This document shows, piece after piece, positions 1,117 to 3,755 of a stretch of DNA of 64,000 nt. The position numbers and the translations under genes were made by a program. Numbering within the stretch: position 1 is the stretch's first letter; each line of letters starts with the position of its first letter. The notes under the pieces were generated by a model. That model had not been told where the DNA came from and searched no databases. It saw only the letters and a program-made list of their open reading frames with translations. This DNA is from Sordariomycetes sp. S80-01Y (lineage: Eukaryota; Ascomycota; Sordariomycetes), in assembly GCA_037042185.1 (NCBI GenBank), contig JAXQJY010000027.1:496001-560000 (forward strand), written 5' to 3'.

Positions 1117-3755
1117 TCAGCACACTCCTGACAAGATTGAAGTCGAATCCGAGATGGGTTGAGCCTGCCAATCCAAAGTCCCGTCCTCCCGTACTGTAAA
1201 GTCCGCTGCTTCTTCTACCAGCTCCCACATACCTGTCTCGGGGTTCCTCTGCGCGGACCGGAAGATGATATTCGTCCCAAAGTCCTCGAAGACAACCTCG
1301 CGTCGGCGAAGTCGAAGCCATTGCAGCTGCTCGTCGTCACCCCATGCCGCGCTTTCTGCCTCTGCCAGCTGGTTGCGGAGCGCAATTGCCCTGAATACAC
1401 GGCTGTCTCGTAAGGCGTTGCGGATGGGATACTGCCCCAGGATACGGATGGCATCAGCCCGAGTCGTAGGGTCACGGCATCCAAAGGCCGACACGAACAG
1501 AGGCCAGGTCCATCCCGAATCCATAGCAAATCCGCAGTTTGGCCGCGCCTGTAGCAGTATCTCGGCTAGGGCGTTGATCTCCCGGTATTGCGGCGTCAGG
1601 CCCTTGGCTGTGATCAGTCCTGAGAAGCGTGGTATGGCCGTGTAGATGTATAACACGAGGTACTCGATCCTTAAATTAACAGCCTGTAAGTATGACTGCA
1701 TGTCTTGGTGCTTGTTATGGGCAGCGGCCTGATATAGAGGATCGTATGCCTCGATCCACCGCTGCAGCCAGTATCTTGACTCGGCAACAAACTTGGAGAT
1801 CTTCGGATTCTGCTTCACGCTGCTCAGCTTCCTTTCCAATTCAGCCTCATCAGATATCCTGGATAGCTGCAGCTGGCTCGAAGTGACGGTCAAAATGGGG
1901 ATATACTGGACCATTTGCCTCTGCAACAGGCCCCAGTATCCCTGAGCCTCGTCATAGGAAGAGAACACACGTGGCATTTCTTCCAAAGAGGTGATGCTCG
2001 ATTGCTTCGGCCTGAAATATGGCGAGTGTTTGGTAAAGGGGAGAATTCCCGGCGGGCGTCGCGGTCGTGGAGGTGTCTGTCCATCGCTCTGCGGGCTGCC
2101 TTGGCTCTGCGGACTAGGAAGACCGGTCTGGCCTTGCGGACCTGGGTGCTGGCCGGGCTGGGGTGACTGGCCCTGCCATGGAGTTCCGGGTTGGCTGGGA
2201 GGGCTTAAATCCGCTGTCGAGACTCGCGAAGTAGGTGCTGTGTTTGTTTCCACTGGTGGTGCCCCAGCTGGCCCTGGTCCAGGTATGTTGGCAGGCGTTG
2301 GGGCGGGCGGTAGCGACCCAGCCCCAGGATTAACCCCAGGGGTAGTGCCCATAGCAGGCTGCCCAGTTTGCTGTTGTCGTTGGCTGGGGGGGAAGAAGAA
2401 CTTCTGATAGGATCCCATGAAGGATCTCGATTGTAGCTCTAGGGGCTTGTAACAGTCGAGGATCTCTTGGACCAACGAGGGCGGCGCGGGCGCTATACTG
2501 ACCAGGTCCGGGGCCTTCGGGGTGCACGAGGCCAGCTCGTTGAGCATACTGAAGCCGTGCGTGATGTGCTTCAACGCTGCGGGCATGTTGGCGCGCTGTG
2601 TCTCGAAGCATATAAACAGCAAGGACGACAGCATGGCCGTCCGCAAACCCTCACGAGTGGGGCGAGCTTTCGATTGCAGACGTAAAGCCTCGCAGTAATA
2701 TATGATGGCGTTGAGGTAGTGCTTGTTGGTGGTAGTCAGGGCGGATGCAACGTCGCGACCCTCCTGCATATAGGCTTTGCGAAGTGCTCCCACAGCCATG
2801 GCACCAAACCGCAGCACCGGTTCTTCGAGGGTTAGCTGCGGCATGGTCTGCGTCCACAGACGGGTCTGGACCAAACCACCGGAAAGGAAAGTCATCGACA
2901 ATGAAGACCATTCGTCAAAGTATGATCTTTGGTCGGCACTTTCAAAGCGAATGGTGTTGACCATGGGTTCCTCAACCAGTACCGGTGCCTTCTTGGTATG
3001 AATAAGCTTGCCCGCCGCTGCTGGGCCTTGTGATTCTGTGCCGGCGTAGCCATCGCAGTACCCTCGCCACTTCATACAGTTGAGACATGATGGCTTCGTC
3101 TCGTCGCATTTCACATGTCGTTTCCTGTCGGAACGTTAGTGTATGAACAGGTGTAGGGCATGACTGGCTCAAGCTATTCCCGTGCAAGAGCTCGGATCGG
3201 GCTGATCAGCCGCTGAGGTGACAACTCACTTGCCTATTCACCGACCGTGTTAGCGTGTGATACTGCGCGGGTGACAAGAGTTAAGAAATCGGAGCGAGAC
3301 AACGAGGCCAAATAGGTGAGATTGACTTACAGGTTGCGCAACCAGTGCGCGCACGAGTCGAGCTTTTGCGCGTATGTCTTGTCCTTGAGTCAAGCGCGAA
3401 TCGGTGGGTGCCTCCATGGGTACTTCCGCGTCCGCGAGTAGGAGGTGCCCCCGCAGATCTGGAGGATGCCGTTGCAGATGAGGAGCTGAAGGATAAGGCG
3501 AAGCACGTCAGCTCAGCTTTGCGGCCAAGACGATCCTATCATTTCACACGTGTACGGATACAAGATCGCAAATGAAGCGCCATTGAGGGCTACAACGTCT
3601 GTCGTGAGCAAGCTCGTTTCGACATGACGGCGTCCGCGGCTCTTGTTCCATTGACAGGTTGAACGGGGGCAACTGAAGATGGAAAGCACTTACCTATTTT
3701 TCGGATTGTTCCTCGGAGGATCCGCGCCGATGGGAACCGTGAACTGAATCTCCAT
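1117..3755 (-). CDS. Zn2Cys6 transcription factor with 4-nt microexon
   Basis: Spliced model complement(join(1117..3124, 3230..3233, 3331..3485, 3694..3755)), 742 residues. It is a nuclear DNA-binding regulator of unknown targets. The zinc cluster sits at about residues 70-97 with spacing C-x2-C-x6-C-x6-C-x2-C-x6-C and the typical RTGC..CKKRHVKCDE core. It is only complete if exon GCAA (3230-3233) is included: the donor GTAAGT at 3330, the acceptor TAG at 3236-3234, the donor GTGAGT at 3229 and the acceptor CAG at 3127-3125 all fit, with CTAAC branch sites in both flanking introns. The first exon (ATG at 3755) joins with phase 2 through GTAAGT to CAG. A Pro/Gln/Gly-rich linker lies near residues 300-420, followed by the helical fungal-specific C-terminal region. 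The body after the cluster is one long open frame. The target pathway is not known; the first-exon start is less certain than the rest. Confidence 0.85.
3230..3233 (-). other. 4-nucleotide coding microexon
   Basis: Bases GCAA on the minus strand, between introns of 97 and 105 bases. It completes the second cysteine codon (T|GC) and starts the following lysine codon (AA|G) of the zinc cluster. Skipping it puts an in-frame TGA at the junction, so it is needed for function. Both flanking introns have consensus donors (GTAAGT, GTGAGT), CTAAC branch sites and AG acceptors. This is read directly from sequence; transcripts would prove it. Confidence 0.8.

What the first reader, a model, noticed from the sequence alone, without database searches (positions are those of the whole stretch)
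3125..3330. A 4-base exon completes a Zn2Cys6 zinc cluster
The coding frame gives a perfect C-x2-C-x6-C-x6-C-x2-C-x6-C cluster only if the exon GCAA (3230-3233) is spliced between two introns of 97 and 105 bases. All four splice sites and two CTAAC branch sites are in place, and skipping the exon leaves a stop at the junction. Exons this short are rare and gene finders miss them, so this gene is probably mis-annotated (truncated zinc cluster) in related genomes.
Basis: partly seen in the sequence, partly recalled or inferred. Interest (0 to 1): 0.75.

Follow-up and report, generated by a model that had tools for sequence, protein, structure and literature searches.

The report
A four-base exon in zinc-cluster regulators
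In this fungus the DNA-binding zinc cluster of a gene regulator is predicted to be completed by an exon of only four bases, and the same four bases between splice signals stand at the same spot in two sister genes, so gene-finding programs have likely misread this gene family in many related fungi.

Summary
The sequence facts hold: on the minus strand one exon ends at 3331 and another starts at 3124; GCAA (3233-3230) lies between GT-AG introns of 97 and 105 bases, each with a CTAAC; joining all three gives a perfect C-x2-C-x6-C-x6-C-x2-C-x6-C cluster, and skipping GCAA gives TGA. One claim is wrong: GCAA is not the only solution. A donor 4 bases downstream of the first (TGTAA|GTCAAT, 3326) gives the identical protein with one 202-base intron. 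What decides it for me is a comparison within the genome. Two paralogues (31% and 41% identical to orthologue P0007) carry AG|GCAA|GTNNGT at the same codon; in one of them none of 59 single-intron joins works. Of 18 other split zinc clusters solved with one intron, 13 have it exactly at the microexon's downstream junction, so the microexon looks like an old intron plus a second one 4 bases upstream. Relatives' protein models are often garbled here, including the Glu/Thr/Ile residues that the decoy donor predicts. No RNA was available. A real, conserved, often mis-annotated 4-nt exon is very likely; 1-nt and 20-nt microexons in fungi are already published.

The parts
3694..3755 (-). Predicted exon 1 (62 nt), starts ATG, MEIQFTVPIGADPPRNNPKN; donor AATAG|GTAAGT
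   Evidence: the MEIQF start is shared by many homologues. Splice sites predicted, not shown by RNA
3486..3693 (-). Predicted first intron (208 nt), acceptor CTTCAG
3331..3485 (-). Predicted exon 2 (155 nt), ends ...RTGCA-ACC-T: first Cys and first base of the second Cys codon
   Evidence: conserved as protein in homologues
3234..3330 (-). Upstream flanking intron (97 nt): GTAAGT ... CTAAC (3253-3249) ... GAATAG
3230..3233 (-). 4-nt microexon GCAA: last two bases of the second Cys codon and first two of the following Lys codon
3125..3229 (-). Downstream flanking intron (105 nt): GTGAGT ... CTAAC (3139-3135) ... CGACAG
1117..3124 (-). Predicted last exon (2008 nt with stop): remaining four Cys and the PF11951-like body
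3321..3326 (-). Rival tandem donor GTCAAT; its use would add GTAA (3330-3327) to exon 2 and give the same protein with one 202-nt intron

Best explanation
GCAA at 3233-3230 is very likely a real 4-nt exon, predicted to be spliced between introns of 97 and 105 bases so that the second Cys and the following Lys of the Zn2Cys6 cluster of a predicted 742-residue regulator are assembled from three exons. Its downstream junction coincides with an intron site that is common among this genome's other split zinc clusters (shown); the upstream junction is inferred to be a second intron gained 4 bases before it in the ancestor of one clade, leaving GCAA stranded. I infer stepwise splicing: four bases leave little room for splicing factors on both sides at once, so one intron probably goes first, most likely the upstream one, which would restore an ordinary TGCAA|GTGAGT donor, and then the other. 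Inclusion is needed for an intact cluster, since skipping gives TGA (shown in the letters). The upstream donor T|GTAAGT is also a decoy: read 4 bases further it supplies TGT for the missing Cys, which likely explains the odd residues in annotated relatives.
For: Letters and frames. Shuffles. Paralogue L017 (C15): T|GTAAGG, 51 nt, TGCTAG|GCAA|GTAAGT, 67 nt, CCTCAG gives CITCKRRHVKC; 0 of 59 single-intron joins work and 1 of 56 two-intron joins does. Paralogue L030 (C10 near 2053 kb): GTAGGT, 47 nt, ATGCAG|GCAA|GTGTGT, 56 nt, TCTTAG gives CATCKQRHIKC. AGGCAAGTNNGT occurs 47 times in 30.87 Mb, three of them at these three genes. 13 of 18 single-intron clusters have their intron at the microexon's downstream junction. 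The three GCAA genes with fungal orthologues are split from 13 other paralogues at 98/96. P0035, P0132 and P0133 read [P/I/A]-G-K-[K/R]-R-H-V, as NNA GGC AA, i.e. AG|GCAA| joined to the last exon. Zn_clus rises from 24.2 bits, profile 8-32 (last exon alone) to 34.0 bits, profile 1-32.
Against: No transcript of this gene was available. In the window the tandem donor gives the same protein, so protein data cannot decide there; in L030 one of 93 single-intron joins (GTGCCA) also works and four two-intron joins keep the spacing, two of them with the exon exactly GCAA. The wrong-frame models of some Fusarium and kin (P0070, P0073, P0083, P0098, P0102) can also be read as a contiguous TGCAA|GTRAGT exon end without a microexon in those species. 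The C15 paralogue sits on a long branch and its frame after the cluster is short. No DNA of any relative outside this genome was seen. AGGCAAGTRAGT is not enriched genome-wide (6 against 7 for the reversed control).
Confidence: 0.92

Rival explanations
1. Tandem donor: exon 2 would end four bases later (ACCTGTAA|GTCAAT) and be joined by one 202-base intron straight to the last exon, giving the identical protein; GCAA and its splice signals would be a coincidence.
For: The join is open and gives the full cluster. The Glu, Thr and Ile residues in 10 of 31 intact-cluster homologues suggest that gene finders choose such a join in relatives.
Against: Donor GTCAAT has A at +5; all 18 single-intron donors of zinc clusters resolved in this genome have G there, with G or A allowed by the filter. 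The 202-nt intron is longer than any of those 18 (46-125 nt). In the C15 paralogue (GTAAGG) no such join exists. In relatives it would put Glu, Thr or Ile at a site that is Arg/Lys in 36 of 40 clusters of this genome (His 3, Phe 1) and Arg in the five solved structures shown. It leaves the shared GCAA sites unexplained.
Confidence: 0.06
2. Neither join: the main transcript would lack an intact cluster (exon 2 dropped, intron kept, or translation starting in the last exon), giving a regulator without its DNA-binding domain.
For: Many homologue models look like this: 19 of 139 rows begin MEIQF-like and reach KRHVKC without exon 2's RTGC or with it damaged. In Trichoderma virens Xlr2 a form without the cluster is reported when a 20-nt microexon is left out (PMC11121469, Results read).
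Against: Exons 1 and 2 are conserved as protein across homologues. Many truncated rows are unspliced metagenome ORFs and cannot show the join. P0007, 734 aa on a 2802-nt unnamed contig, crosses every junction with Lys and is probably a spliced transcript.
Confidence: 0.02

Closest known systems
1-nt exon of CYP621A P450 genes in Fusarium (PMC12940212, 2026; abstract, introduction and discussion read)
   Same: Tiny exon inside a conserved motif in filamentous fungi, out of frame if skipped, conserved among relatives, missed by gene prediction
   Different: Other protein family; 1 nt, not 4; splicing shown there with public reads, not here; no tandem-donor decoy in the parts I read
20-nt microexon of Xlr2, Trichoderma virens (PMC11121469, 2024; abstract, Results, section 3.5 and legends read)
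   Same: Microexon carrying part of the Zn2Cys6 cluster of a fungal regulator, missed in most annotations
   Different: 20 nt and two whole Cys codons; PF04082 body, whereas this protein matches PF11951; inclusion there depends on glucose, untested here
Plant microexons of 15 nt or less (PMC8831610, 2022; abstract and passages read)
   Same: Conserved tiny exons, wide misannotation, gene copies with and without the microexon, GTRAGT donors next to a 1-nt exon
   Different: Plants, other genes, backed by RNA-seq and RT-PCR

Membership tests
Zn2Cys6 (Gal4-type) transcription factor, PF00172 | Six Cys with the 2-6-(5 to 12)-2-(6 to 8) spacing (spacing rule recalled) | tested here: met
   2-6-6-2-6 with GCAA included
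Zn2Cys6 (Gal4-type) transcription factor, PF00172 | Profile score above the curated cut-off (21 bits) | tested here: met
   34.0 bits over profile 1-32; 24.2 bits for the last exon alone
Zn2Cys6 (Gal4-type) transcription factor, PF00172 | Zinc and DNA binding | not testable with these tools
   No assay
PF11951 (Fungal_trans_2) regulators | Profile score above the curated cut-off (21 bits) | tested here: met
   22.0 bits for the whole protein, only just above; 0 single stretches pass on their own
Microexon (very short internal exon between spliceosomal introns) | Canonical GT-AG introns with branch motif on both sides | tested here: met
   for the window; for two paralogues
Microexon (very short internal exon between spliceosomal introns) | Inclusion in mature RNA | not testable with these tools
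   No RNA reads; P0007 is a probable transcript of a relative, seen only as protein
Xlr2 | PF04082 middle domain, as the Xlr2 paper states | tested here: not met
   Only PF00172 and PF11951 reported at E up to 0.001
Xlr2-like splicing switch | Condition-dependent inclusion | not testable with these tools
   No RNA

The most novel reading that the evidence does not exclude
AG|GCAA|GT is an ancient, fixed 4-nt exon of a whole clade of Zn2Cys6 regulators, older than the split of several Sordariomycete orders, spliced stepwise like a recursive splice site and used as an on/off switch for DNA binding: inclusion gives the regulator, while skipping it or using the upstream CGCAG acceptor gives an early stop.
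Probability: 0.2. Interest if true: 0.75.

Novelty: new member of a known kind. Interest (0 to 1): 0.52.

Why it matters
A conserved 4-nt exon inside a DNA-binding domain would mean that a family of fungal regulators is wrongly annotated in many genomes, sometimes by one wrong residue (Glu, Thr or Ile for Lys) next to a zinc-binding Cys, which a Pfam score does not flag. Anyone who clones, expresses or models these regulators from database sequences would then work with a faulty DNA-binding domain. It also offers a clean test of how introns on both sides of a 4-nt exon are removed: in this gene the two rival splicings differ by one base of mRNA.

Tried and rejected
The phage, plasmid and E. 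coli collections were not searched, as I expected no fungi there. The exact site AGGCAAGTRAGT has 6 occurrences in the genome; the four that are not at the window's gene or the C15 paralogue showed no cluster halves by my patterns within about 500 bases either side on that strand. Not counted as evidence: wrong-frame models P0070, P0073, P0083, P0098 and P0102, because their letters (ASK, ASE) fit both GCAA followed by GTRAGT as a separate exon and a contiguous TGCAA|GTRAGT exon end. I looked for a studied orthologue: FGSG_02805 (name derived from FG05_02805 of P0070) is in one paper, PMC5144959, once, as a PCR-amplified gene of a mapped interval (passages read). Pfam score does not separate the Lys model from Glu, Thr or Ile models (34.0 against 33.9, 35.6 and 33.1 bits). 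In one search the class 'wrong-frame exon2' (10 rows) holds at least one false positive (P0031), and the class 'junction garbled' (12 rows) holds four rows that are in fact intact clusters with other letters (P0126, P0134, P0135, P0136, all Lys). P0088 was filed there under another class than I read it. Structure prediction was not used.

Full report
OBSERVATION. The gene runs on the minus strand. Stop-to-stop frames show one long exon with the last four Cys of a zinc cluster and an upstream piece that reads ...RTGCAT. On the minus strand exon 2 ends ACCT at 3331, GCAA lies at 3233-3230 between AATAG and GTGAGT, and the last exon starts GAAACG at 3124; the introns are 97 and 105 nt and each holds a CTAAC. 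Joined, they give CATCKKRHVKCDETKPSCLNCMKWRGYC, a 2-6-6-2-6 cluster. Leaving out GCAA gives ACC TGA. I add a predicted first exon (3755-3694, MEIQF...) and a 208-nt intron, which makes 742 residues; the MEIQF start is shared by many homologues.

Enumerating joins from the first Cys to the third, one of 180 single-intron joins also gives the cluster: donor GTCAAT at 3326, four bases after GTAAGT, which adds GTAA to exon 2 (TGT AAG in place of TGC AAG) and gives the same protein. Of 1366 two-intron joins only GCAA works. So the 'only if' of the finding is false, and the two readings had to be told apart in another way.

CHANCE. In 100,000 dinucleotide shuffles of the 206-nt stretch with its ends fixed, small exons (1-16 nt) restoring the spacing with a GTNNG donor appeared in 865, with Lys/Arg at the next residue in 109, with GTRAGT in 25, and with Lys/Arg, GTNNGT and both branch motifs in 0. 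By contrast, a GT four bases into a donor is part of the common GTNNGT form, and T|GT always reads TGT, so the rival join costs little by chance (inference from the letters).

PARALOGUES. Searching the window's own genome (30.87 Mb, 16 contigs) with the orthologue P0007 gave 46 matches; the best outside the window's gene are on C10 near 2053 kb (41% identity to P0007 over residues 61-326) and on C15 near 867 kb (31% over 60-278). AGGCAAGTRAGT has 6 sites (reversed control 7), one of them just upstream of the C15 gene's second cluster half; AGGCAAGTNNGT has 47 (reversed control 24), three of them at these genes. In C15 the frame VRTGCIT ends T|GTAAGG; 51 nt on comes TGCTAG|GCAA|GTAAGT; 67 nt on CCTCAG|ACGGC, giving CITCKRRHVKC. 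None of 59 single-intron joins works there, one of 56 two-intron joins does, and GTAAGG offers no tandem donor. In C10 2053 kb, GTAGGT, 47 nt, ATGCAG|GCAA|GTGTGT, 56 nt, TCTTAG gives CATCKQRHIKC; there one of 93 single-intron joins (GTGCCA) also works and gives Arg, and four of 96 two-intron joins keep the spacing, two of them with the exon exactly GCAA. All four flanking introns of the two paralogues hold CTGAC near their 3' end (letters).

WHERE IT CAME FROM. I chose candidate split zinc clusters by hand (from matches that lack the first cluster half or begin near it) and left out five fetched loci whose cluster is uninterrupted (L045, L046, L048, L049, L050). One search examined 28 rows, 25 distinct genes (three rows are second fetches). 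Three take the GCAA solution (the window also the rival one), 18 take one intron, four were not resolved (L021, L023, L029, L042). Thirteen of the 18 have their intron exactly after the second base of the codon that follows the second Cys, which is the microexon's downstream junction; two have it at ACATG| or similar, three elsewhere. All 18 donors have G at +5 (the filter allowed G or A); the rival donor in the window has A. A tree of 23 rows splits the three GCAA genes plus seven homologues of other fungi from 13 other paralogues at 98/96; C15 is on a long branch, 11 of 20 inner branches are open, and the root is for drawing only. The simplest history is an old intron at the downstream site and a second one gained four bases upstream in the ancestor of this clade; this is inference.

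RELATIVES. No DNA of relatives could be fetched, so I read their protein models: 139 proteins from three searches (one search listed 120 of 157). Of these, 31 show CxxC-x-[KRQ]RH[VI]KC: Lys 21, Glu 8, Thr 1, Ile 1. Glu, Thr and Ile are what a tandem donor gives if the first donor is GTGAGT, GTACGT or GTATGT (inference by codons). In the first 40 of 150 listed clusters of this genome, the best-scoring and so biased to consensus, the residue is Arg 31, Lys 5, His 3, Phe 1; in the five solved structures whose alignments were shown it is Arg. Models of Fusarium verticillioides (P0052, Glu) and of F. proliferatum and F. xylarioides (P0121, P0067, Lys) differ here although they are close kin (kinship recalled). 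Three models run out of the first flanking intron into the microexon and then join the last exon: P0035 Beauveria asiatica (PGKKRHV), P0132 Colletotrichum orchidophilum (IGKRRHV), P0133 C. musicola (AGKRRHV); each fits NNA GGC AA, an AG|GCAA site. P0033, P0039 and P0093 and P0088 (my reading) fit exon 2 joined straight to the last exon in a wrong upstream frame. In three Beauveria models RTGC-x2-CKP (P0013, P0029, P0035 with a variant) implies GTAARCC, which has no tandem donor. P0007, 734 aa on a 2802-nt unnamed contig, crosses all junctions with Lys and is probably a spliced transcript; an intronless copy is not excluded. P0131, on a 16.6-kb contig, may be intronless. The models P0070, P0073, P0083, P0098 and P0102 are ambiguous and could mean that some Fusarium and kin have no separate microexon.

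LITERATURE. Full-text searches of the held library gave two close precedents: a 20-nt microexon in the zinc cluster of Xlr2, included when glucose is low (PMC11121469; abstract, Results, section 3.5, legends read) and a 1-nt exon in Fusarium CYP621A with read support (PMC12940212; abstract, introduction, discussion read). The listings of these searches showed no paper on a 4-nt exon in a Zn2Cys6 gene; the library lacks most subscription journals.

VERDICT. The microexon is very likely real (0.92), shared by a clade of regulators, and an annotation trap. Seen directly: letters, frames, paralogue structures, counts. Inferred: splicing itself, its order, its age, and the cause of the relatives' odd residues. 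As a kind it is known; as a case I found no earlier report in the searches named.

Noticed in passing
window 3262-3230 (minus strand): The upstream intron has a second acceptor (CGCAG) with its own TTAAC (3284-3280); using it would give a 33-nt exon with an in-frame TAG, a possible poison exon.
   Followed up: partly
L017 (G000:C15:866300-868600, minus strand): The C15 paralogue's open frame ends about 302 residues after the cluster start, against over 600 in the window's gene; it may have more exons or be shortened.
   Followed up: no
L039 and L044 (G000 C9 and C16): Two other zinc clusters have their single intron three bases further upstream (ACATG|), so intron positions in this short stretch vary among paralogues.
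   Followed up: no
P0052, P0067, P0107 (Fusarium), P0036 (Neonectria): Some database models are 1000 residues or more and carry a further domain (PF08610 or PF01636), possibly fusions with a neighbouring gene in annotation.
   Followed up: no
P0131 (16.6-kb unnamed contig): A relative that reads through the cluster without a break and may be an intronless copy with Lys at this site.
   Followed up: no
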